Part shown: positions 40,687 to 51,412 of the stretch, piece by piece
How the letters are laid out: every line of letters starts with the position of its first letter
How positions within the stretch are numbered: position 1 is the first letter of the stretch
Origin: Sphingomonas sp. ATCC 31555
GTDB taxonomy: Bacteria; Pseudomonadota; Alphaproteobacteria; Sphingomonadales; Sphingomonadaceae
DNA: 64,000 nucleotides
Assembly (NCBI RefSeq): GCF_000282895.1
Contig: NZ_ALBQ01000053.1
Location: forward strand, 62,001 to 126,000
Reading direction: 5' to 3'
The notes under the pieces: model-generated
What the model was told of the DNA's origin: nothing
What the model saw: only the letters and a program-made list of their open reading frames with translations
The model's database searches: none
Made by a program: the position numbers and the translations under genes

Positions 40687-42363
40687 TCACCCCCGCTGCA
40701 ACTGTCGCACCGCATGGTCGGCAGCGCGCACCGTCAGCGCCATGAAGGTCAGCGACGGATTCACGCACGAGATCGAGGCCATCTGCGCGCCATCGGTGAC
40801 GTAGACATTGGGCGCATCGTGCGTGCGGCTAAAGCCGTCGAGCACCGAATTGCGCGGATCCGTGCCCATGCGCGCGCCGCCCATCTCGTGGATCGCATCG
40901 CCGGGAACGTGCTCGCCTTCGGAGCTGCGCACGTTGATCAGCCCCGCGGCCTTCAGCATTGCTTCGCCCTGCGCCCGCGCATCCGCCATCATCCGCAGTT
41001 CGTTTTCGCGGAAAGTGACGTCGAACCGCATCAGCGGCACCCCGAACCGATCCACCTTGCTCGGATGGAGCGACACGCGGTTATCCTTGTAGGGCAGGCA
41101 TTCGCCGAATGCGCCCATCGAAAAGCGCCAAGGGCCATAGCGGCGCATGCCGTGCTTCATGGATTCGCCAAAGCCCACCGGTGCCGCCACGTCGCGCCGC
41201 GCGCTGCCCTGATAGCCATAGCCGCGCCGGAAGCCCACGCCTTCCTCGCCGCCGACATTGCGGAAGCGCGGAATATAGACGCCTCCGGGACGACGACCAT
41301 ATTCGATCAGATCAGTCATCCCCGGAATCTCGCCTTCCACACCCACGCGGAAGATGTGATCCATCACATAGCGGCCCAGCGTGCCGCTGCTGTCGAAATA
41401 GCTGCGGTCGCTGCCTGGCGCGCGGGAGTTCATCAGGATCTGCGTCGATGCCATTGCCGATGCGCAGACGAAGACAAGATCGGCCTGCACCACTTCCGCC
41501 TGGCCGCTCTTGGCGTCGACATAGCGGACGCCCGTCGCCCGCTTCTTCACGGGATCATATTCAATGTTGGTGACGACCGCGTCGGACTTCAGCGTCAGAC
41601 GGCCCGTCGCCCGCGCCGCCGGCAGCGTTACCGCCTGGGTGGAGAAATAAGCGCCGAACGAGCAGCCATTGCCGCACTGGTTGCGCAGCTGGCATTTGGT
41701 GCGGCCCTGTTCGGGTTTGTCCTCGGTCAGGTTGGACAGGCGGGTATGGATCAGCTTGCGGCCCGGGAACTGCGCCTCCAGCCGCTGCTTCAGCCATTTC
41801 TCGGCGACGTTCATCGGCATTGGCGGCTGGAAGTTGCTGTCCGGCAGATGCGGCAGGTTCTCGCGGGACCCGGAAACGCCGATATAGTCTTCCACCCGCG
41901 CATACCATGGGGCGATGTCGTCATAGCCGATCGGCCACACGCCATCGACGCCCTCGCGCTTGTTCGCGTCGAAATCCTCCTGGCTCCAGCGGAAGCTCCA
42001 ACGGCCCCAGATCAGCGATTTGCCGCCGACGGCGCCGGGACGGATCCAGTAAAATTTGCTCCCCTCGTCATAGGCATAGGGGTTCAGCCGGTCGTTATTG
42101 TAGAAGCCCATGCTGCTCGGCTGAACATAGCCGAAGCGCGCGATGAAATAGTCCTTTTCGACCAGCGGTCGGGGCATGGCGTTACGGGCGGGCACCTCGA
42201 AGGCAGGCTTGCCGTCATAAGGGTAGCCCTCGCCATGCTCGACCATGCGGCCGCGGTCGAGCATCAGCACGCGCAGCCCTTTTTCGGTCAGTTCCTTGGC
42301 GGCGAAACCGCCGCTTACGCCGGAGCCAATGACGATCGCATCGAACCTGTTGGTTGCAGCCAT
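40687..42363 (-). CDS. GMC-family FAD sugar dehydrogenase, large subunit (LacA-like)
   Basis: The 558-residue flavoprotein has FAD motif VIGSGVSGG at 11-19, GGKSLIWGRWSFRW (flavin-contact region), a three-Cys hinge KCQLRNQCGNGCSFGA that in FAD-glucose dehydrogenases holds a 3Fe-4S cluster, HEMGGARMG with the catalytic His, and NPSLT with its Asn partner. It has no export signal, so export would rely on pairing with the Tat-bearing subunit-3 protein two genes upstream. Related complexes oxidise C3 of glycosides or C1 of glucose. Its neighbours favour the C3 reaction. It is the last gene of the nine-gene run. Confidence 0.85.
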   Translation of the reverse strand: MAATNRFDAIVIGSGVSGGFAAKELTEKGLRVLMLDRGRMVEHGEGYPYDGKPAFEVPARNAMPRPLVEKDYFIARFGYVQPSSMGFYNNDRLNPYAYDEGSKFYWIRPGAVGGKSLIWGRWSFRWSQEDFDANKREGVDGVWPIGYDDIAPWYARVEDYIGVSGSRENLPHLPDSNFQPPMPMNVAEKWLKQRLEAQFPGRKLIHTRLSNLTEDKPEQGRTKCQLRNQCGNGCSFGAYFSTQAVTLPAARATGRLTLKSDAVVTNIEYDPVKKRATGVRYVDAKSGQAEVVQADLVFVCASAMASTQILMNSRAPGSDRSYFDSSGTLGRYVMDHIFRVGVEGEIPGMTDLIEYGRRPGGVYIPRFRNVGGEEGVGFRRGYGYQGSARRDVAAPVGFGESMKHGMRRYGPWRFSMGAFGECLPYKDNRVSLHPSKVDRFGVPLMRFDVTFRENELRMMADARAQGEAMLKAAGLINVRSSEGEHVPGDAIHEMGGARMGTDPRNSVLDGFSRTHDAPNVYVTDGAQMASISCVNPSLTFMALTVRAADHAVRQLQRG

Positions 42364-42389
42364 GGTGTTCCCCTCCAGGGATCTTGTTC

Positions 42390-43235
42390 TTAGAAGCGCA
42401 GTGCGCGGAGCGTTTTGAAGCTGGTGGTAATGTCGGGCAAATAGGGCGCGGGCGCCTGATCGTTCTCGACATAGAAGTGGCGCACGCCGGCCCCGGCCTT
42501 GCGCTTGAACAGCGCCGCGAAGTCGATCGTGCCGGCGCCTACTGCCGTCATGCTGCGGTCGGGGCGCATGTCCTTCACATGATAGGCATAGATCCGGCTG
42601 CCGAGCCGATCGATCAGCGCTGACAGATCCTGTCCGGCGAATTTCGCCCAGTAGAGATCGAGCTCGATCTTCACCAAGGTGGGATCCGTTTCCTTCAGGA
42701 ACCGCTCGTACAGGCTCACGCCGCCGGGTTGGACGGTGAACTCGAAATCATGGTTGTGATACGCGAAGCCAAGGCCCGCCTTCTTCAGATCGGCGGCGAA
42801 GCGGTTGAAGTTGGGTAGCGCCTTCTGCCAGCCTTCTTCGGTACGATGCTCTGCGGTCATGTACGGCAGCACCACCGTATCGGCGCCCAGCGTCTTCGCC
42901 CGCGCTACCGACTGCTCGAACTGGCCGAGCAACGCATCATAGCCGACATGGATCGATGGGGAACGCAGGCCGACGCGGTCCATCGTCTGGCGCAGCATCG
43001 CGGCATCCATCGCCTCATAGCCACCGCCACCGAATTCGACCTCGCGATAGCCGATGCTTGCGATCGCTTCGAGCGTGGCGGCCGGATCCTTCTGGAAGAG
43101 ATCGCGCACCGTGTAGAGCTGGATGCCGATCGCCTGGAGGCTGGCGGCGTGCGCCGGCGGCACGACCCGGTCGAGCAGGAGCACGGCCGCAGCGCCGCCG
43201 GCGCCTGCGAGCAGAGTACGACGGCTGATCATCAT
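42390..43235 (-). CDS. Tat-exported TIM-barrel sugar epimerase/isomerase-like protein
   Basis: The 281-residue xylose-isomerase-like TIM barrel carries a Tat signal (MISRRTLLAGAGG, cleavage near AHA). Metal-site residues appear as YREVEFGGGG, AYHNHDFEF, KIELDLYW and YHVKDMRP. In known 3-keto-glycoside pathways such proteins act as epimerases, lyases or hydratases on 3-keto sugars. It overlaps the subunit-3 gene by four bases and is 26 bases from the GMC gene. Confidence 0.85.
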   Translation of the reverse strand: MMISRRTLLAGAGGAAAVLLLDRVVPPAHAASLQAIGIQLYTVRDLFQKDPAATLEAIASIGYREVEFGGGGYEAMDAAMLRQTMDRVGLRSPSIHVGYDALLGQFEQSVARAKTLGADTVVLPYMTAEHRTEEGWQKALPNFNRFAADLKKAGLGFAYHNHDFEFTVQPGGVSLYERFLKETDPTLVKIELDLYWAKFAGQDLSALIDRLGSRIYAYHVKDMRPDRSMTAVGAGTIDFAALFKRKAGAGVRHFYVENDQAPAPYLPDITTSFKTLRALRF

Positions 43236-43792
43236 GCGCTGTACACCTTGTTGACCTGAGAATAGGGAAAGGCGCCGTTATATTCGCCGGGCACCGGCAG
43301 ATATTCGCGCTCCTGCGTGATGCCGATCTCCGACGTGTAATATCCTGCGATCACCATCTGCCGGAATGCATCGAAGAAGGGCTTGCCACCCTGGATCTCG
43401 CCGTTCATCGCCAGTGTGAGCAGCGCATCGTGCTGCGCGGGAGTCGCCTTGGTCGCGGCAATCTTATAGTCCTGCTGGCACCGTGCCTCGATTGCGTCGA
43501 GGCCGGCCAGGATCGGGATGCGATCATCCGGCGCCGCCCAGTCGGCGAGCAGCTTCTCGATGAACGCAGGAACGCCCGCAGCGATCGCGCCGGGCGTGTC
43601 CGTGGTCGGGATCACGCGCTCGCTCAGCGCCGTCATCAACGTCCGCTGGGGAGGGTTGAACACCGCGACGCTGGGCGGGCCGTCGCTGATCAGCTCGGTG
43701 GCCGCCACCTGGGCCGCGCGCGCTAGGGGCGCGAACAAGCCCGCACCGAACATGGCGGCAACACCGGCCAGCGCCGTTCTGCGATCGATCAT
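43232..43792 (-). CDS. Gluconate 2-dehydrogenase subunit 3 family protein (LacC-like)
   Basis: The 186-residue protein has a Tat-type signal (MIDRRTALAGVAAMFGAG). The domain includes LMTALSERVIPTTDTPGAIA, the standard opening of the subunit-3 family. Such small subunits bind the GMC catalytic subunit and carry it through the Tat system. It overlaps both neighbours by four bases. Confidence 0.88.
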   Translation of the reverse strand: MIDRRTALAGVAAMFGAGLFAPLARAAQVAATELISDGPPSVAVFNPPQRTLMTALSERVIPTTDTPGAIAAGVPAFIEKLLADWAAPDDRIPILAGLDAIEARCQQDYKIAATKATPAQHDALLTLAMNGEIQGGKPFFDAFRQMVIAGYYTSEIGITQEREYLPVPGEYNGAFPYSQVNKVYSA

Positions 43793-44616
43793 TTGCCTGC
43801 TCCCGGAAGGTCTTGCGCGATCGCTGCCTCGGGCAGCGGGCGGACCCAGATGTTGCGGAACGAAACCGGCGAGTCATGGTCCTGCAGCTGGATCGGCAGG
43901 GCATCGGCATGCGCCGTATATTCGGCGACGTGGCGCCAGTTGGTGGTGCCGAGCATCGCCTGATGGTTCTGCACCAGCACGCCGTTCAGAAAGGCCGTGA
44001 TGTACGCCGGTCGCAGCAGCTTGCCATCGGCGGCAAAGCGGGGGCGCTCGAAGACGATATCGTAGCTCTGCCACTCGCCGGGCTTGCGCGACGGGTTCAC
44101 CAGCGGCGGCTTCCAGCCGTAGACTCCGCCGACGGTGCCGTCGGCGTAGGTGGGGTTCTGATAGCCGTCGAGGATCTGGATCTCGTAGCGCTGCATGAAC
44201 CAGATGCCGCTATTGCCCCGATCCTGCGAACTCTTAGTCGGCGGGTTGGGCGAACGGAACTCCAGATGGAGCTGGACGTCGCCGAAGCTCCGCTTGGTGA
44301 TCAGCGCATTCTCGCCGCCGCTGCTGGCGCGCGTGGGAACAGTGAGTACGCCGTTGGCAACCGGCCAAAGCTTGCGCTGGGCCTGCCAGGCATCGAGAGA
44401 GCGGCCATCGAACAGCATGATCGCATCCGAAGGCGCGCCGCCGGGCTGGGCGGCGGGAGTCACGACGCTGGGGTACGGCCGATCGCTGTCATGGACGTGC
44501 CAGTTCCCGCCAGGCAGGATCGGGGTGTCCTTAAACCCCGGTTTCTCCTGCGCGACCGCCGGGGTGGCGGCAAGTGCCGCCAGTCCGGCAAGCAGCAGGG
44601 TGCTGCATCTCGACAT
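43789..44616 (-). CDS. Secreted DUF1080 (3-keto-disaccharide hydrolase) protein, copy 1
   Basis: The 275-residue concanavalin-like beta-sandwich protein has a Sec signal (cleavage near AVAQE). Family residues include IMLFDGRSLDAWQ, LHLEFRSPNPP, GNSGIWFMQRYEIQILDGY and PISFRNIWVRPL-like SPVSFRNIWVRPL. Family PF06439 contains enzymes that hydrolyse 3-keto glucosides or disaccharides. It would cleave the product of the GMC complex in the periplasm. It overlaps the subunit-3 gene by ATGA. Confidence 0.85.
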   Translation of the reverse strand: MSRCSTLLLAGLAALAATPAVAQEKPGFKDTPILPGGNWHVHDSDRPYPSVVTPAAQPGGAPSDAIMLFDGRSLDAWQAQRKLWPVANGVLTVPTRASSGGENALITKRSFGDVQLHLEFRSPNPPTKSSQDRGNSGIWFMQRYEIQILDGYQNPTYADGTVGGVYGWKPPLVNPSRKPGEWQSYDIVFERPRFAADGKLLRPAYITAFLNGVLVQNHQAMLGTTNWRHVAEYTAHADALPIQLQDHDSPVSFRNIWVRPLPEAAIAQDLPGAGK

Positions 44617-44629
44617 CTTTTCTCTCCCC

Positions 44630-45532
44630 TCAGACGGCGTCGATCGTGCGATAGGCGGCGACCAGCCGCTCTTCGCCTGCGCGCCCCTTGATCGAATTGC
44701 CGTGTTCCATCCCGATCACGCCGGCATAGTTCCGCCCGCGCAGCCAGCGGACGATGGTTGCATAGTTGACTTCGCCGCTGCCCGGCTCGTTGCGACCGGG
44801 ATTGTCGCCGAACTGGATATAGCCGATCTCGTCCCAGCACATGCCGAGCGTCGGGATCAGGTTCCCGGACTGGATCTGCTCATGATAGAGGTCGGCGAGG
44901 ATCTTGGTGCCCGGGCTGTTCGCCCCGCGCGCCACGGCGTAGCCCTGCGCGATCGTCTGCATATACACGCCGGGATGGTTGGTGCGGGTGTTGAGCGGCT
45001 CCATCACCAACGCCATGTTGTGTGGGGCGACAATGTCGCCGGCCCGGCGCATCACGTCGATCACTCGCGCCGTCTGGATGTCGATCGGCACCTTTGGGTC
45101 CATGAACCCGGTCACCACCGTCATCCGCGTCGCGTTCAGCCGCTTGGCGACATCGATGGACTTGCGGATATCCGCGAGGAACGCCTCGCGCTCCGCGCCG
45201 TCGTTCGCACCGAGGATTGGCCGCGACTGCGACCATTTCGGCATGCTGGCGACGAACACGCCCATCTTCATGCCGCGGCTGGACAGCGCCTTGGCCATCT
45301 GGGTCTGCTCGTCGACCGTGCGGCCGGCGGCTTCATTGTCCTCCCAGGCGGTGAACCCCTGGTCCGCGGCGAAGGCGATCTGTTCGATTCGCCCGCCGCG
45401 GCTGGCGAAGCTGCCCTCGTGCGGAGCATAGTGCATCGAAAAACGCGCGGCGTTCGATTGGCCGCGCGCGGCGGAGGCGACCAGCGGGGCAGCGGCGGCC
45501 CCTACCAAAACGGTGCGGCGCGACACGCTCAT
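44630..45532 (-). CDS. Tat-exported TIM-barrel protein (hydroxypyruvate-isomerase-like)
   Basis: The 300-residue xylose-isomerase-like TIM barrel has the signal MSVSRRTVLVGAAAAP. MEPLNTRTNHPGVYMQT and GMEHGNSIKG resemble hydroxypyruvate isomerase and 2-keto-sugar isomerases. It is the second exported isomerase of the cluster and only distantly like the one at 42390. The ATG at 45532 overlaps the cytochrome c stop by four bases; the longer open frame upstream is inside the cytochrome gene. Confidence 0.85.
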   Translation of the reverse strand: MSVSRRTVLVGAAAAPLVASAARGQSNAARFSMHYAPHEGSFASRGGRIEQIAFAADQGFTAWEDNEAAGRTVDEQTQMAKALSSRGMKMGVFVASMPKWSQSRPILGANDGAEREAFLADIRKSIDVAKRLNATRMTVVTGFMDPKVPIDIQTARVIDVMRRAGDIVAPHNMALVMEPLNTRTNHPGVYMQTIAQGYAVARGANSPGTKILADLYHEQIQSGNLIPTLGMCWDEIGYIQFGDNPGRNEPGSGEVNYATIVRWLRGRNYAGVIGMEHGNSIKGRAGEERLVAAYRTIDAV

Positions 45533-45894
45533 TTGCCGCTTGCCGCCTTGAGATAGGCGATGATCTGCGCACGCTTTGCGGCATCGGCCATGCCGATCGG
45601 CATTCGCGTACCAGGAACCTTCTTCATCGGCGCGGCCAGGAACTGGTCCAGCGTCGCCGCATCCCATTGCAGCTTCGAATTCTTGAGCGCGGTGGAATAG
45701 TTGAAGCCGGGCAGCGAGGCGGCCGGACGGCCGACGACACCGTTGAGGTTGGGGCCGACACCGTTCCTACCGCCCTTTTCGACGGTGTGGCACGCCTTGC
45801 ACGCCGCGAAGGCCGGGGGGGCTGCGGTCTGTGCCCAGGCGGCCGGGCTGGCCGTCAGCGCCGCAGTCGCGGCAAGCGCCATCCAGAACTTCAT
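45529..45894 (-). CDS. Periplasmic class I cytochrome c (LacB-like)
   Basis: The 121-residue protein has a Sec signal (cleavage near AWAQT), heme motif CKACH at 32-36 and likely sixth ligand Met98 in GTRMPIGM. The HTVEKGGRNGVGPNLNG segment matches mitochondrial-type small cytochromes c. In this cluster it is the probable electron acceptor of the GMC dehydrogenase. It overlaps both neighbours by four bases. Confidence 0.92.
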   Translation of the reverse strand: MKFWMALAATAALTASPAAWAQTAAPPAFAACKACHTVEKGGRNGVGPNLNGVVGRPAASLPGFNYSTALKNSKLQWDAATLDQFLAAPMKKVPGTRMPIGMADAAKRAQIIAYLKAASGK

Positions 45895-47039
45895 TCACGC
45901 TCTCCAGAAACGATTTCGGTCCATTTGTGGTCGGCATGCGCGTTGGCGATCATCGCCTCGACGAACGCCATGGTGCGCAGGCCATCCCGCACGCCTGGGC
46001 AGCCGCCGCCCTGCTCGCCGCGGATCGCCGCCGCGAAGCCGCGGTACAGATTGGCGAACGCCTCGACATAGCCTTCGGGGTGCCCGGCGGGGGTTCGCAG
46101 CAGCAGCTTGGTGCTCGGCCCCAGGCCTGGTCCACCCGCGCGCAGCGTTTCCGCCGGGCGATCGAGCCAGCGTAGGGTGAGCGTGTTCGGCTCCATCTGC
46201 GCCCATTCCAGCCCGCCGCGCTCGCCATGGATGCGCAGGCGCAGCCCGTTTTCCTCGCCAGCGGCGACCTGCGTCGCCTTGAGCGTCCCGCGTGCGCCAC
46301 CGGCAAAGCGAAGCAGCGCACTGACATCGTCGTCGAGCCGGCGGCCCGGCACATGGATCGCGAGTTCGGCAGCCAGCGTTTCGACGCGCAAACCCGAAAC
46401 ATGCTCGGCAAGGTGAAAGGCGTGGGTGCCGATGTCGCCCAGGCAACCGCCCAACCCGGCGCGGGCCGGATCGGTGCGCCATTCGGCCTGCTTGTTGCCT
46501 TCAGTGTCTAACGGCGCGCTCAGCCAGCCCTGGATATATTCCACCTGCACGAGCCGGATCGCTCCGAAATCACCGCGAGCGACGCGGGCTCGCGCCTCTT
46601 CAACCAGCGGGTAGCCGCTATAGGTGAAGGCGAGACCGAACTGCTTGCCGCTCGCTGTCGCCGCGCCGGCAATGGCGCGGGCCTCGTCGCCGTTCATCGC
46701 CATCGGCTTTTCGCAGAAGACGTGAAAGCCGGCGTTCAGCGCAGCAATAGCGACGGGAGCGTGGAGATGGTTGGGGGTGACGATTGCCACCGCATCAATC
46801 CGCTCATTTTCCGGCAGCGCCGCTTCGCCCGCGAGCAGTTCGCCATAGGTGGCATAGACCCGCGCCGGATGAAGACCGAGCAGGTCGCCGGTACGCGCAT
46901 TCTTGCCCGCATCGGTGCTGAACGCGCCCGCCGCCAGTCGCCAGTCACCGTCGAGCGCCGCCGCCATGCGGTGCACGGCGCCGATGAACGCGCCTTCGCC
47001 ACCGCCGACCATGCCGAGCTTGAGCGGATGCCGGATCAT
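45891..47039 (-). CDS. Gfo/Idh/MocA-family NAD(P) oxidoreductase
   Basis: The 382-residue protein has an N-terminal Rossmann domain ([17 protein letters not shown]), the family EKP motif in [14 protein letters not shown] (Lys at about 116), and the catalytic-region DIGTHAFHL near 210. It has no signal, so it is cytoplasmic. In 3-keto-sugar pathways such enzymes reduce or oxidise keto-sugars (3-keto-glucose reductase, for example). It is coupled by four-base overlaps to the cytochrome and TIM-barrel genes. Confidence 0.88.
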
Positions 47040-48100
47040 GCCCGCCCACGCTCCAGCCCGAGCAGCGTGCGGATCGCGTCCTTGTCGACGCCACTCGAGG
47101 CGAAATCGTCGAACGCACGGCCGGTGACGCGGATGATATGGTCGCGAATGAATGGCGCGCCTTCACGGGCGCCGTCCTCGCTGTTCTTTAGCGCGCATTC
47201 CCATTCGATCACCGCCCAGCCGCGATAGCCATATTGGGCGAGCTTGCTGAAGACGCCGACGAAATCGACCTGCCCGTCGCCGGTCGAGCGGAAGCGCCCG
47301 GCGCGGTCCGCCCAGCTCTCATAGCCGCCATAGACGCCGCTGCGCCCGGTGGGATTGAACTCGGCATCCTTGACGTGGAAGCACGAGATGCGATCGTGAT
47401 AGCGATCGATGAAGTCGAGATAGTCGAGCTGTTGCAGCACATAGTGCGACGGATCGAACAGGATACGCGCTCGAGGATGGTTGCCCACCGCCGCCAGGAA
47501 GCGCTCCCAGGTCGCGCCGTCGTGGATGTCCTCGCCCGGATGGATTTCGAACGCGCAATCGACGCCGGCATCTTCAAACACGTCGAGAATCGGCAGCCAG
47601 CGGCGGGCGAGTTCGGCGAATGCCTCTTCCACCAGCCCGGCCGGGCGCTGCGGCCACGGATAGACATAGGGCCAGGCGAGCGCGCCGGAGAAAGTGGCAT
47701 GCGCCTTCAACCCCAGCCGGGCGCTGGCGCGCGCGGCGAGCTTAACCTGCTCGACGGCCCAAGCCTGGCGCTCGGCCGGCTTGCCGTGGAGCTCGGCAGG
47801 CGCGAAACCGTCGAACAACGTGTCATAGGCCGGGTGCACCGCCACCAGCTGCCCCTGCAGGTGCGTCGACAGCTCGGTCGGCTGGATGCCGAACTTGTCG
47901 AGCCGGGCGCGGAGATCGTCGCAATAGGCTTGGCTTTCGGCCGCTTGCTTCACATCGATCAGGCGCGGATCGCACGGGATCTGCACCCCGACATAACCGA
48001 GCCCTGCGGCCCATTCGGCCAGATGATCGAGCGTGTCGAACGGCGCCTGGTCGCCGAGGAACTGGGCGAGGAAGATGGCCGGGCCCTGCATCGCGGTCAT
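47036..48100 (-). CDS. Cytoplasmic TIM-barrel sugar isomerase/epimerase
   Basis: The 354-residue xylose-isomerase-like barrel has FEIHPGEDIHDGATW, ILFDPSHYVLQQLDY and CFHVKDAEFNP as metal-site strands, and ends with WAVIEWECALKN. There is no export signal, unlike the two Tat-tagged relatives in this cluster. The probable role is isomerising the imported sugar before or after the Gfo/Idh reaction. The ATG at 48100 gives the four-base overlap with the transporter gene; a longer frame upstream lies in that gene. Confidence 0.87.
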   Translation of the reverse strand: MTAMQGPAIFLAQFLGDQAPFDTLDHLAEWAAGLGYVGVQIPCDPRLIDVKQAAESQAYCDDLRARLDKFGIQPTELSTHLQGQLVAVHPAYDTLFDGFAPAELHGKPAERQAWAVEQVKLAARASARLGLKAHATFSGALAWPYVYPWPQRPAGLVEEAFAELARRWLPILDVFEDAGVDCAFEIHPGEDIHDGATWERFLAAVGNHPRARILFDPSHYVLQQLDYLDFIDRYHDRISCFHVKDAEFNPTGRSGVYGGYESWADRAGRFRSTGDGQVDFVGVFSKLAQYGYRGWAVIEWECALKNSEDGAREGAPFIRDHIIRVTGRAFDDFASSGVDKDAIRTLLGLERGRA

Positions 48101-49344
48101 GCGCGCGCCTCCTTGGCGGGATTTTTGAAGGTGATCTGGAAGAGCAGCGCGATGACCGCTGCCGCGACCGCCGGGTACCACCAGAGCTGGTGCCAGTCGG
48201 CCGGCATCGCATTAGCCGGCAGCTGCGCATAGAGCAGTCCGCCGATCTGCGAGCCGAGCAGCATGCCCACGCCATAGGTGAACAGCGTCAGCATCCCCTG
48301 CGCCTGAGCATTGACACCCTTCGGCGTTGCGATGGTGCCGGTGTAGATTGCGCCGGCGACGAAAAAGAAATCGTAGCAAACACCGTGAAGCGCAACGCCA
48401 AGATAGATCGCCCAGATCCCGCCGGCGCCGTCGCCGATCGCGAACAGGGCATAGCGCAGCGCCCAGGCGATCATGCCGACGAGCAGCAGCGGCTTCACGC
48501 CGAAGCGGCGATACAGCCACGGCATCGAGAACATGAAGACCAGTTCGGACATCTGCCCGATCGCCAGCGTGCCGCCGACATTCTCGATCCCCGCCGCACC
48601 GATAAAGGGCGAAGCATAGGCATAATACATCGCCAGTGGGATCGAGATCAGCGTGGCGCAGAGCATGAAGACGAGGAAGGAACGGTTGCGCATCAGGCCG
48701 AAGGCTTCGGTGCAGAACACCTCGGCAACAAGGCTCTGGCCCTGCGGGGCATCGGGCTGAACGTTCGGCAGAGTGACGCTGTACAGGCCGAGCGCAAGCG
48801 ACACCACGCCGGCGACCTGGAAGATCTGCGGACTGGCAGAAAGCCCGGCCCAGCCGATGATCAGCCCCGCGACGATCCAGCCGAGCGTGCCGAAGGCGCG
48901 GACAAAGGGGAAGCGATCCACGCGTTCGCCGAAGCTCTTGAGCGCAATGGTGTTCGCCAAGCCCACGGTGGGCATGTAGAGGATCATATACCCAAGCAGC
49001 AGCCAGACGAAGCTGGCGCCATGTTCCGGCGTGAGCAGCGTCGGCAGCACGAACAGCAGAGCGCCCCCGACGAGGTGCAGCACCACCATCAGCATCTTGG
49101 GGCTGAGGAACCGTGCCGCCGCCATGCCGAGCAGGAAAGATCCGACGATCGAGGCAATCGGGCCGACGGAAAAGGCGTTGGCGATCAGGCTACCGACACC
49201 CATGGTCTGCATTACCAGGCCCAAGGTTACGTTCCACGCCCCCCAGACGAAGAATTGCATGAACATCAGCGCGCTGAGGCGCCCCGTTAGCAAACCCGAT
49301 GCCGGGCCTGCGGTGCCCGCACTTGCCCCTTCTGCAGCGACCAT
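48097..49344 (-). CDS. MFS transporter, nucleoside:H+ symporter (NupG-like) family
   Basis: The 415-residue protein has 12 predicted helices. It opens LSALMFMQFFVWGAWNVTLG and contains VRAFGTLGWIVAGLIIG, both typical of the NHS/NupG family, whose members take up nucleosides; relatives in sugar clusters probably carry sugars. It is the first gene of the nine-gene run and faces the LacI gene across a 126-base gap with a palindromic operator. It should import the keto-sugar product. Confidence 0.85.
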   Translation of the reverse strand: MVAAEGASAGTAGPASGLLTGRLSALMFMQFFVWGAWNVTLGLVMQTMGVGSLIANAFSVGPIASIVGSFLLGMAAARFLSPKMLMVVLHLVGGALLFVLPTLLTPEHGASFVWLLLGYMILYMPTVGLANTIALKSFGERVDRFPFVRAFGTLGWIVAGLIIGWAGLSASPQIFQVAGVVSLALGLYSVTLPNVQPDAPQGQSLVAEVFCTEAFGLMRNRSFLVFMLCATLISIPLAMYYAYASPFIGAAGIENVGGTLAIGQMSELVFMFSMPWLYRRFGVKPLLLVGMIAWALRYALFAIGDGAGGIWAIYLGVALHGVCYDFFFVAGAIYTGTIATPKGVNAQAQGMLTLFTYGVGMLLGSQIGGLLYAQLPANAMPADWHQLWWYPAVAAAVIALLFQITFKNPAKEARA

Positions 49345-49409
49345 GCGCTATCCTCTCCCCGAACGCGGCGTTCCCGCTGTCGAATCGCAGCCTAGGCACC
49401 ACCGCCGAT

Positions 49410-49427
49410 GATGTAAAGGATTACATC
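49410..49427. promoter_or_regulatory. LacI-family operator palindrome
   Basis: GATGTAAAGGATTACATC is a perfect 7-bp inverted repeat (GATGTAA/TTACATC) around AGGA. The inner TGTAA-N4-TTACA layout has the size and arms of common LacI/CytR-type operators, which more often have a CG centre. It lies in the divergent gap, 44 bases before the lacI-family ATG and 66 bases before the transporter ATG, well placed to control both. Confidence 0.65.
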
Positions 49428-49470
49428 GTTTCCTATCGACACGCTTGTCGCCAAGCGACATGACGAGCGG

Positions 49471-50472
49471 ATGACGACGATCATCGAAGTCGCGGCCGCC
49501 GCCGGCGTTTCGACGGCCACCGTGTCGCGCGTGCTCAGCCAGCCCGATCGGGTGGCAGCGGCAACGCGGGTGCGGGTGCTCGAAGTCGTTGATGCGCTTG
49601 GATATCGCCCCAATGTGGCGGCCCGTACGCTGCGCACGCTGCGCGCCGCGAAGATTCTGCTGACGGTGCCCGATATCTCCAACCCGTTCTTCGCCAGCGT
49701 GATTCGCGGCGCGGAGGAAGCGGCCCGCGACGCCGGCTATGCCATGGTGCTGGGCGATACGCGCCACGACGCGCAGGTCGAGGATCAATATGCCGAAATG
49801 CTGTCGCGCCGCGAAGTGGACGGGCTCGTCTTTCTCGGCCATCGCCTGCCGGCCAGCCTGGCGCCGCTGGTCGCCACCAGTGGCGGCATCGCGCCGATCG
49901 TCAATGGCTGCGAATATAGCCCCGATCTGGGCGTGCCCAGCGTGCATATCGACAATGCCGCCGCCAGCGCCGACGCAATCGAGCATCTCGTCGCGCTCGG
50001 CCACCATGCGATCGGCATCCTCACCGGCCCGCCGATCAGCCCGATCAGCCGCGATCGCCTGGCGGGCGCGATGCGCGCGGCCGAACGCCATGGGATTGCC
50101 GGGCAGATGCAGATCCGCGTCGGCGACTATTCGGCCGATTGCGCCTGCCGCGAGGCACGGTTCCTGCTCGCGGCTGGCGTGACGGCGATCTTCTGCTTCA
50201 ATGACGAAATGGCCGTCGGGGCGATCAGCGCCATCGACGAGGCGGGTCTGCGCTGCCCTGTCGACGTGTCCGTCATGGGTTTCGACGATCTGCCGCTGTC
50301 GCGCTTCTTCCATCCGCCGCTGACCACCATCGCCCAGCCCAAGGCGCTGATCGGCCGCCACGCCGTTGAACTGCTGGTCGATATCCTGCGTGGCGGCGTG
50401 CCGCGCGAGCGACAAGTGACGCTCAAGCACGAACTGATCGTACGGCGCAGCACCGCTGCGCCGCCGCGCTGA
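49471..50472 (+). CDS. LacI-family transcriptional regulator
   Basis: The 333-residue regulator has an N-terminal helix-turn-helix (IIEVAAAAGVSTATVSRVLS, about 4-23), hinge helix region PNVAARTLRT and a periplasmic-binding-protein-like effector domain (VPDISNPFFASVIRGAEEAA). It probably represses the divergent transporter operon and itself via the palindrome in the gap, relieved by a sugar. Its stop is one base from the convergent DUF1080 gene. Confidence 0.93.
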   Translation: MTTIIEVAAAAGVSTATVSRVLSQPDRVAAATRVRVLEVVDALGYRPNVAARTLRTLRAAKILLTVPDISNPFFASVIRGAEEAARDAGYAMVLGDTRHDAQVEDQYAEMLSRREVDGLVFLGHRLPASLAPLVATSGGIAPIVNGCEYSPDLGVPSVHIDNAAASADAIEHLVALGHHAIGILTGPPISPISRDRLAGAMRAAERHGIAGQMQIRVGDYSADCACREARFLLAAGVTAIFCFNDEMAVGAISAIDEAGLRCPVDVSVMGFDDLPLSRFFHPPLTTIAQPKALIGRHAVELLVDILRGGVPRERQVTLKHELIVRRSTAAPPR

Positions 50473-50473
50473 A

Positions 50474-51412
50474 TCAGTCACGCGCCGCCACGATCCGCGG
50501 CAGGCTGCGGATCGGTTCGATGGTGATGCGGCGGAACCAGGTTTCGGCGCCTTCCGACTGCAACTGAATCTGGCCATGGGTCAGCGGCGTGCGACTGCCG
50601 TCGGGCGCCACCACTACCAGATCGCGCACCTCGGCCACCGGCACGCCGTTCACCACATGCACCGCCCGGTTGCCGAGCACGTACAAGTCGAGCGTGTTCC
50701 ATTCGCCGACCGGCTTTTCCGCGTCGACAGCGGCCTCTACGTTCCAGGTGGGCGTGCCGTTGATCATCTCGACGGTGCGACCATCAAGGCGGAACCGCAG
50801 ATGCGGGGCAATCAGCGCTGGATCGACCACCGCATTCGTCTGCGCGCGTACCTGGCGGCCGACCATCACGATCATGCCCGTCGAGCCGCGCATGATCTCG
50901 AATTCGGCCGAGGGGCGCCAGGTGCCGAACACCTCTCCCGCCCGTCCATGCGTGTGATAGAGCAGGCCGTTATTCTGCGGCAGGCTTTTGCGCGGGGCGA
51001 AGGTATGCGTGCCCCATTTGAACTGCAGCCGCAGATGATAATCGCGCAGATCGCTACGGTGGACCAGGCTACCCCAGGTCTCGCCCTTGATCCAGATCGC
51101 CGGTTCGCCATCGACATTGCGTACGGCGAAATCGCCGCTGGTGTCGCGGCTGGTGCCGATCGGCGTGGCGCTGCTATCCGCGCGATAGGTGATCGCAGGA
51201 TCGGCATAGCCCAGCCAGGGCTGCCAATCGCCAAGCGTTCGCCCGTCGAACAGCGTTGTCGCCTTGCCAGCGGGCTTGGGGATGTCGGCAAGCACCAGGC
51301 GCTGCGGCTTGCCCGCCGGAGCCCCCGCCACGGCGCGGGCCTGATCCAGCGATTCCTGGCCCGCCGCCGATCCGGCCGGCAGCACCAGCAGCAACGCCAA
51401 GCTTCGTATCAT
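50474..51412 (-). CDS. Secreted DUF1080 (3-keto-disaccharide hydrolase) protein, copy 2
   Basis: The 312-residue protein has a Sec signal (cleavage near SAAGQE). Domain residues include TLFDGRTLGDWQPWLG, LRLQFKWGTHTFAPRK, EFEIMRGSTGMIVMVGRQ and GQIQLQSEGAETWFRRI, placing it in PF06439 but clearly diverged from copy 1. It lies outside the nine-gene run, convergent with the regulator and with its own upstream region. Two hydrolases suggest either two substrates or a split of binding and catalysis. Confidence 0.82.
   Translation of the reverse strand: MIRSLALLLVLPAGSAAGQESLDQARAVAGAPAGKPQRLVLADIPKPAGKATTLFDGRTLGDWQPWLGYADPAITYRADSSATPIGTSRDTSGDFAVRNVDGEPAIWIKGETWGSLVHRSDLRDYHLRLQFKWGTHTFAPRKSLPQNNGLLYHTHGRAGEVFGTWRPSAEFEIMRGSTGMIVMVGRQVRAQTNAVVDPALIAPHLRFRLDGRTVEMINGTPTWNVEAAVDAEKPVGEWNTLDLYVLGNRAVHVVNGVPVAEVRDLVVVAPDGSRTPLTHGQIQLQSEGAETWFRRITIEPIRSLPRIVAARD

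What the first reader, a model, noticed from the sequence alone, without database searches (positions are those of the whole stretch)
49345..49470. Palindromic operator in the lacI-transporter divergent gap
GATGTAAAGGATTACATC is a perfect 7-7 inverted repeat placed between the two divergent starts. The TGTAA-N4-TTACA arms match LacI-type operators but the centre AGGA is not the usual CG, so this regulator may use a variant central step.
Basis: partly seen in the sequence, partly recalled or inferred. Interest (0 to 1): 0.55.

Follow-up and report, generated by a model that had tools for sequence, protein, structure and literature searches.

The report
LacI-type operator fused to transporter promoter
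This short mirror-image DNA site is very probably the landing site of a sugar-pathway repressor in Sphingomonas bacteria, and its odd centre is at least partly explained because half of it also appears to be part of the neighbouring transporter gene's promoter.

Summary
The palindrome GATGTAA-AGGA-TTACATC is real (window 49410-49427) and is the only match with up to 2 mismatches in the window (0.03 expected).

Comparative evidence makes it the operator of the adjacent LacI-family regulator. Of 295 Sphingomonas-genus genomes, 80 carry the regulator at 70% identity or more. All 80 have TGTAANNCTTTACA (transporter strand) upstream of it.

The centre is GG in 77 of these and GC in 3, never CG, although the hinge leucine usually paired with CG is kept.

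The odd centre is at least partly a promoter effect. On the transporter strand the site reads TGTAATC|CTTTACA, with TTTACA 17 bp from a conserved TAG-type -10. In 18 genomes that have the transporter but no such regulator, CTTTACA-N17-TA survives in 18 of 18, TGTAATC in 2 of 18. The non-canonical central C is therefore also a promoter base.

Some relatives have GG/CC centres without this overlap, so the protein family tolerates them. Non-CG LacI operators are a known minority (49 of 1251 regulators with even palindromes, plus 29 degenerate; PMC4052901). No copy precedes the second DUF1080 gene. New member of a known kind; binding is untested.

The parts
49410..49427 (.). Palindromic operator GATGTAA-AGGA-TTACATC
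   Evidence: core conserved upstream of 80/80 orthologous regulators in the genus
49412..49418 (-). Promoter-side half-site CTTTACA; its last six bases TTTACA are the inferred -35 hexamer of the transporter promoter
   Evidence: Invariant in 54/54 and 80/80; kept in 18/18 genomes with the transporter but without the orthologous regulator
49419..49425 (-). Distal, operator-only half-site TGTAATC
   Evidence: Kept in 2/18 genomes without the orthologous regulator; all six centre variants among the 54 aligned gaps change this half only
49389..49394 (-). Inferred -10 element TAGGCT of the transporter promoter, 17 bp from TTTACA
   Evidence: T and A each 52/54, G 53/54 at a fixed distance; TA in 39/39 further regulator-bearing genomes and 18/18 without it
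49471..50472 (+). LacI-family (CytR-like) regulator, 333 aa
   Evidence: PF00356 and PF13377; best NCBIfam model CytR, below its cut-off
48097..49344 (-). Nuc_H_symport MFS transporter, first gene of the divergent cluster
   Evidence: PF03825, E 1.4e-83
40687..48181 (-). Downstream cluster: TIM barrel, Gfo/Idh dehydrogenase, TIM barrel, 3-keto-disaccharide hydrolase (DUF1080), Gluconate_2-dh3 subunit, TIM barrel, GMC oxidoreductase
   Evidence: Pfam hits; co-transcription with the transporter inferred from order and strand; the first ORF's start is uncertain (it overlaps the transporter)

Best explanation
The palindrome is the operator of the adjacent LacI-family regulator, and it is a composite element. 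One half (TGTAATC on the transporter strand) is a pure operator half-site. The other half (CTTTACA) is both the second half-site and the -35 region of the transporter promoter CTTTACA-N17-TAGGCT. Without inducer (probably a glycoside or 3-keto-glycoside, judging from the enzymes) the dimer binds with a recognition helix in each TGTAA arm and the hinge helices at the centre. This would cover the -35 region and block sigma-factor binding, so the transporter and the 3-keto-glycoside-type cluster are off; the regulator's own start, 44 bp away, is probably also controlled. Inducer releases it. The centre reads CC/GG instead of CG at least partly because its promoter-side base is held by the promoter, and the regulator accepts this. 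Shown: conservation, co-occurrence with the regulator gene, fixed -35/-10 geometry, survival of the promoter half where the orthologous regulator is absent. Inferred: binding, repression, inducer, autoregulation.
For: (1) Core site upstream of 80/80 orthologous regulators: 41 in the first 151-genome sample and 39 more. In that first sample a TGTAANGSNTTACA site occurs anywhere in 41/41 genomes with the orthologue and 10/110 without (Fisher p about 1e-27; the genomes are related, so this is no true probability). (2) Recognition helix and site change together: the four 55% relatives whose loci were read have SRATAAR for STATVSR and no match of 10 or more of 12 arm bases in 14 kb. (3) The TTTACA to -10 distance is fixed at 17 bp: T and A each 52/54, TA 39/39. 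(4) In the 18 of 97 transporter-bearing genomes without the regulator orthologue, CTTTACA-N17-TA is kept in 18/18, TGTAATC in 2/18, TGTAAC[C/G] in 4/18, neither in 12/18. In the 12 the base next to the central C is A, C or T while the C is constant. (5) All six centre variants among 54 gaps are scattered tips and change only the distal half. (6) Two genomes have the same element, again 17 bp from TA, upstream of a TonB receptor gene.
Against: No binding, footprint or transcription data. TTTACA lacks the TTG of -35 elements mapped in a relative (TTGNNN in Zymomonas), and a strict sigma-70 scan finds no promoter here. GG/CC centres also occur without CTTTACA: G207 (59% regulator), four sites in L090, two TCCA sites in each of three 43%-group genomes, so promoter overlap is not the whole reason. 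G046 and G219 keep the full site before the transporter without the orthologue; both hold a 41% relative that might serve it, but G128, G132 and G135 hold a 43% relative and lack the distal half. Four more regulator-less genomes keep TGTAAC[C/G]CTTTACA. The regulator-less cases are only about three independent groups in a tree of 17 of the 18. One centre variant (L069, AGCG) coincides with a hinge change (A51 to P).
Confidence: 0.75

Rival explanations
1. The regulator itself has switched its central preference from CG to GG/GC (a protein-driven variant central step), and the promoter overlap is incidental.
For: 0 of 80 orthologues have CG. CC/GG centres appear in relatives without CTTTACA: G207, L090 (four sites), the 43% group. 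Another LacI-type element in the genus, TGTAACCGGTTACA, keeps CG (a listing that was cut off). In L069 an unusual centre (AGCG) goes with an unusual hinge.
Against: Hinge leucine 54 is kept and A51 is canonical except in L069; apart from L069 I saw no hinge change tracking the centre, judged by eye. The 43% group has TCCA, TCCA and TCGA in one apparent regulon. The central C is kept in 18/18 promoters without the orthologous regulator.
Confidence: 0.25
2. The site belongs to a different regulator of the transporter, and the LacI gene is just a neighbour.
For: G046 and G219 keep the site before the transporter without the orthologue; four other such genomes keep a TGTAAC[C/G]CTTTACA form.
Against: TGTAANN next to CTTTACA is present in 80/80 genomes having the LacI gene and lost in 12/18 transporter-bearing genomes lacking it; the arms match the family's operator form; the 55% relatives with a changed recognition helix lack the site.
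Confidence: 0.1
3. The palindrome is a chance feature or a purely promoter element with no operator role.
For: CTTTACA-N17-TA persists without the regulator.
Against: 0.03 expected matches in the window; the distal TGTAA is invariant in 54/54 although it lies outside the -35 and -10, and it tracks the regulator gene.
Confidence: 0.04

Closest known systems
LacI-family operators with even palindromes and a central CG (survey PMC4052901)
   Same: Arms TGTAA-N4-TTACA, two-fold symmetry, position between divergent regulator and target genes, TVSR recognition motif, hinge A51 and L54 in the window's regulator
   Different: Centre GG (or GC), not CG; one half doubles as an inferred -35 region. The survey (passages read) records CG for 1173 regulators, another pair for 49 and a degenerate one for 29, among 1251 with even palindromes
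EbgR-like LacI-family operators with a single central C or G (PMC2329647)
   Same: LacI-family operators without a CG centre
   Different: Those have one central base and their regulators lack the hinge leucine (passages read); here spacing is even and the leucine is present
CytR of Escherichia coli
   Same: Best NCBIfam match of the regulator (293.9 bits); neighbour is a Nuc_H_symport transporter
   Different: Below the CytR cut-off of 436 bits; the gene cluster looks glycoside-oxidising, not nucleoside catabolism

Membership tests
LacI-family operator (even palindrome) | Inverted repeat with TGNAA-N4-TTNCA-type arms next to a LacI-family gene | tested here: met
LacI-family operator (even palindrome) | Central CG pair | tested here: not met
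   GG here; 0 of 80 orthologues have CG. The survey lists another or a degenerate pair for 78 of 1251 regulators, so this does not exclude membership
LacI-family operator (even palindrome) | Conservation and co-occurrence with the orthologous regulator | tested here: met
   80/80; 2/18 transporter-bearing genomes without it keep the full site
LacI-family operator (even palindrome) | Bound by the regulator | not testable with these tools
   Needs an experiment
LacI-family regulator | LacI HTH plus periplasmic-binding-like domain | tested here: met
   PF00356, PF13377; aligned to CcpA chains over residues 3-330
LacI-family regulator | Hinge alanine 51 and leucine 54 | tested here: met
   NVAARTLRT in the window's regulator; among the 53 named orthologues L54 is kept, and A51 is changed in L069
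CytR equivalog | NCBIfam NF008269 cut-off (436 bits) | tested here: not met
   293.9 bits
Sigma-70-type promoter | -35 and -10 hexamers about 17 bp apart | tested here: inconclusive
   TTTACA-N17-TAGGCT with conserved geometry, but the -35 lacks TTG and the strict scan finds none

The most novel reading that the evidence does not exclude
A lineage of LacI-family regulators with the standard leucine hinge recognises operators whose central step is GpG/CpC, an asymmetric step, and the asymmetry is set by merging one half-site with the target promoter's -35 region, so that operator and promoter evolve as one element.
Probability: 0.3. Interest if true: 0.5.

Novelty: new member of a known kind. 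Interest (0 to 1): 0.36.

Why it matters
It assigns a regulator, its operator and the likely core promoter to a 3-keto-glycoside-type gene cluster found in a large part of Sphingomonas. It also warns that an unusual operator centre need not reflect altered protein specificity: overlap with a promoter can fix it. Genomes that keep the transporter without the regulator form a natural experiment that separates operator bases from promoter bases.

Tried and rejected
Auxiliary in-gene operators: two 3-mismatch matches lie in the same cluster, at window 41354-41369 (GMC gene, a palindrome with a GG centre) and 48974-48989 (transporter gene). Across orthologues the GMC match varies at synonymous positions (16 loci). 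The transporter match follows a conserved amino-acid stretch and is poorly palindromic (53 loci tried, 52 mapped). Both are treated as coding coincidence.

Hinge residues tracking the centre: none seen apart from L069, judged by eye, not tested statistically.

A promoter for the regulator itself on the plus strand could not be assigned. A strict sigma-70 scan of 49300-49500 found nothing; the transporter promoter rests on conservation and spacing.

Literature: searches listed no paper on this regulator that I could recognise. Most subscription journals are not held. PMC4052901, PMC2978694, PMC2329647, PMC7566282 and PMC8407463 were seen as passages, plus section 7 of PMC2978694; other papers only as listings.

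Not done: structure prediction, fold searches. The promoter geometry of the 43%-group and L090 sites was judged by eye.

A miscount mended: I first counted 17 regulator-less transporter genomes; a recount found 18 (G219), which I then fetched and searched. The tree holds 17 of the 18 and 28 regulator-bearing rows.

Full report
OBSERVATION. The stretch GATGTAAAGGATTACATC lies at 49410-49427, between the transporter start (49344, minus) and the regulator start (49471, plus). With up to two mismatches it is the only match in 64 kb; shuffles average 0.03. In the window's own genome TGTAANNNNTTACA occurs twice: this site, and TGTAACCGGTTACA on another contig. The finding's coordinates 49345-49470 are the gap; the site itself is 18 bp.

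NEIGHBOURS. The regulator has a LacI HTH and a periplasmic-binding-like domain. Its best NCBIfam model is CytR, below cut-off. The divergent cluster encodes a Nuc_H_symport transporter, a TIM barrel, a Gfo/Idh dehydrogenase, another TIM barrel, a DUF1080 3-keto-disaccharide hydrolase, a Gluconate_2-dh3 subunit, a third TIM barrel and a GMC oxidoreductase. I read this as 3-keto-glycoside metabolism; the substrate is inferred. The second DUF1080 gene (50474-51412) has no copy of the motif in front of it.

CONSERVATION. In 53 orthologous gaps from named genomes (of the 80 loci; the other 27 are more distant relatives) plus the window, all 54 hold TGTAANNCTTTACA on the transporter strand. Twelve of the fourteen core positions are invariant, the other two are 49/54 and 51/54. 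In the full set of 295 genus genomes, 88 pass the E-value for the regulator: 80 at 70% identity or more, 8 at 55-59%. All 80 have the core: 41 read from the pattern hits and 39 from fetched upstream DNA. On the regulator strand the centres are AGGA 73, AGGT 4, AGCG 1, AGCT 1, AGCA 1; none is CG. The named and unnamed sets overlap, so they are not independent. In the first sample of 151 genomes, 41/41 with the orthologue and 10/110 without have a TGTAANGSNTTACA site anywhere.

HELIX AND SITE. The four 55% relatives whose loci were read (L160-L163) carry SRATAAR where the others carry STATVSR, and show no site with 10 or more of 12 arm bases in 14 kb. Three more (L235-L237) show no TGNAA-N4-TTNCA in about 360 bp upstream. 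This supports the arms being read by this protein. Camas et al. (PMC2978694, passages and section 7) link residues 15/16 and 20 to arm bases and residues 51/54 to the central CG.

WHY THE CENTRE IS NOT CG. On the transporter strand the site is TGTAATC|CTTTACA. TTTACA is followed after exactly 17 bp by TAG: T and A are each 52/54, G 53/54, and TA is 39/39 in the further genomes. Relatives have 17 bp as the commonest spacer, and in Zymomonas -35 TTGNNN and -10 TANNNN (PMC7566282, passages; PMC8407463, passages). Here the -35 lacks TTG, and a strict sigma-70 scan finds nothing. The main comparison is the 18 of 97 transporter-bearing genomes that lack the regulator orthologue (one search scored at most 7 candidates per genome, so a missed orthologue is possible; for G219 all 19 were scored and the best is 41% identical). 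CTTTACA-N17-TA is kept in 18/18, TGTAATC in 2/18 (G046, G219), TGTAACC or TGTAACG in 4/18, and neither in 12/18. On a transporter tree with 17 of the 18 and 28 regulator-bearing rows these fall in about three places among regulator-bearing lineages; many forks are weakly supported and the root is distant. In the 12-genome group the base next to the central C is A, C or T while the C is constant. So the C that spoils the CG centre is kept without the regulator. Among the 54 gaps the six departures in the centre (L047, L069, L074, L075, L078, L079) are scattered tips and all lie in the distal half. In 5 of the 12 a different palindrome with a CG centre, TGAAACCGGTTACA, sits just upstream of CTTTACA, in 3 a one- or two-base variant of it, in 4 neither, as if another LacI-type operator had replaced this one off the -35.

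EVIDENCE THE OTHER WAY. GG/CC centres also occur without CTTTACA. The 59% relative G207 has TGTAATCCATTACA. L090 has four TCCA/TGGA sites in one locus. Three 43%-group genomes have two TCCA sites beside the regulator and one TCGA about 10 kb away, in L153 before a TonB receptor. So the protein family tolerates GG/CC, and overlap is not the sole cause. Among more distant relatives with a recognisable site, two Phenylobacterium/Caulobacterales loci have TCGA and acidobacterial ones mostly TCGG, but others differ (L107 ACAA; L089, L092 and L098 have TTGA, TGCT, AGCA and TCCA forms downstream of the regulator). L069 combines an AGCG centre with a changed hinge. G046 and G219 keep the whole site without the orthologue and hold a 41% relative instead. 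Two genomes (G074, G061) have a second AGGA site upstream of a TonB receptor gene, 295 and 828 bp from the predicted start, again with CTTTACA-N17-TA.

KNOWN OR NEW. The LacI survey PMC4052901 (passages) reports a CG centre for 1173 regulators, another pair for 49 and a degenerate one for 29, among 1251 with even palindromes. EbgR-type operators with a single central base go with loss of the hinge leucine (PMC2329647, passages). The present case is even-spaced with the leucine kept. It is a new member of a known minority, with a comparative explanation for its centre.

WHAT IS SHOWN AND WHAT IS INFERRED. Shown: the site, its conservation, its tie to the regulator gene, the fixed spacing, and the survival of the promoter half without the orthologous regulator. 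Inferred: binding, repression by blocking the -35, autoregulation, the inducer.

Noticed in passing
L153, L157, L158 (G135, G132, G128): A 43% relative sits among a GH92 glycosidase, a sodium symporter and a TonB receptor (Pfam run on L153 only), with two TCCA-centred and one TCGA-centred operator: an apparent regulon mixing CC and CG centres.
   Followed up: partly
L160-L163, L235-L237: A 55% relative clade in Sphingomonas; the four read have recognition helix SRATAAR in place of STATVSR. No TGTAA-type site was found in L160-L163 (14 kb) or in the short upstream stretches L235-L237; their operator is unknown.
   Followed up: partly
L148 (3994) and L149 (4060): A second AGGA operator upstream of a TonB-dependent receptor gene in two genomes, suggesting regulon expansion to outer-membrane uptake.
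   Followed up: partly
L180, L181, L228, L229, L230: Where the regulator is missing, a TGAAACCGGTTACA palindrome with a CG centre sits just upstream of the transporter -35, perhaps an operator of another LacI-type regulator.
   Followed up: no
L174:1015-1030 (G078): A second palindrome, ATGTAACTCGTTACAC, lies about 10 bp upstream of the regulator start and also lacks a central CG; G176 (L213) also shows two sites in its gap.
   Followed up: no
L044: A record titled Microvirga sp. SRT01 groups inside Sphingomonas in the regulator tree; the label may be wrong.
   Followed up: no
window 41354-41369: Palindromic ATGTGATGGATCACAT in the GMC oxidoreductase gene; varies at synonymous sites in orthologues, so probably coincidence.
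   Followed up: yes
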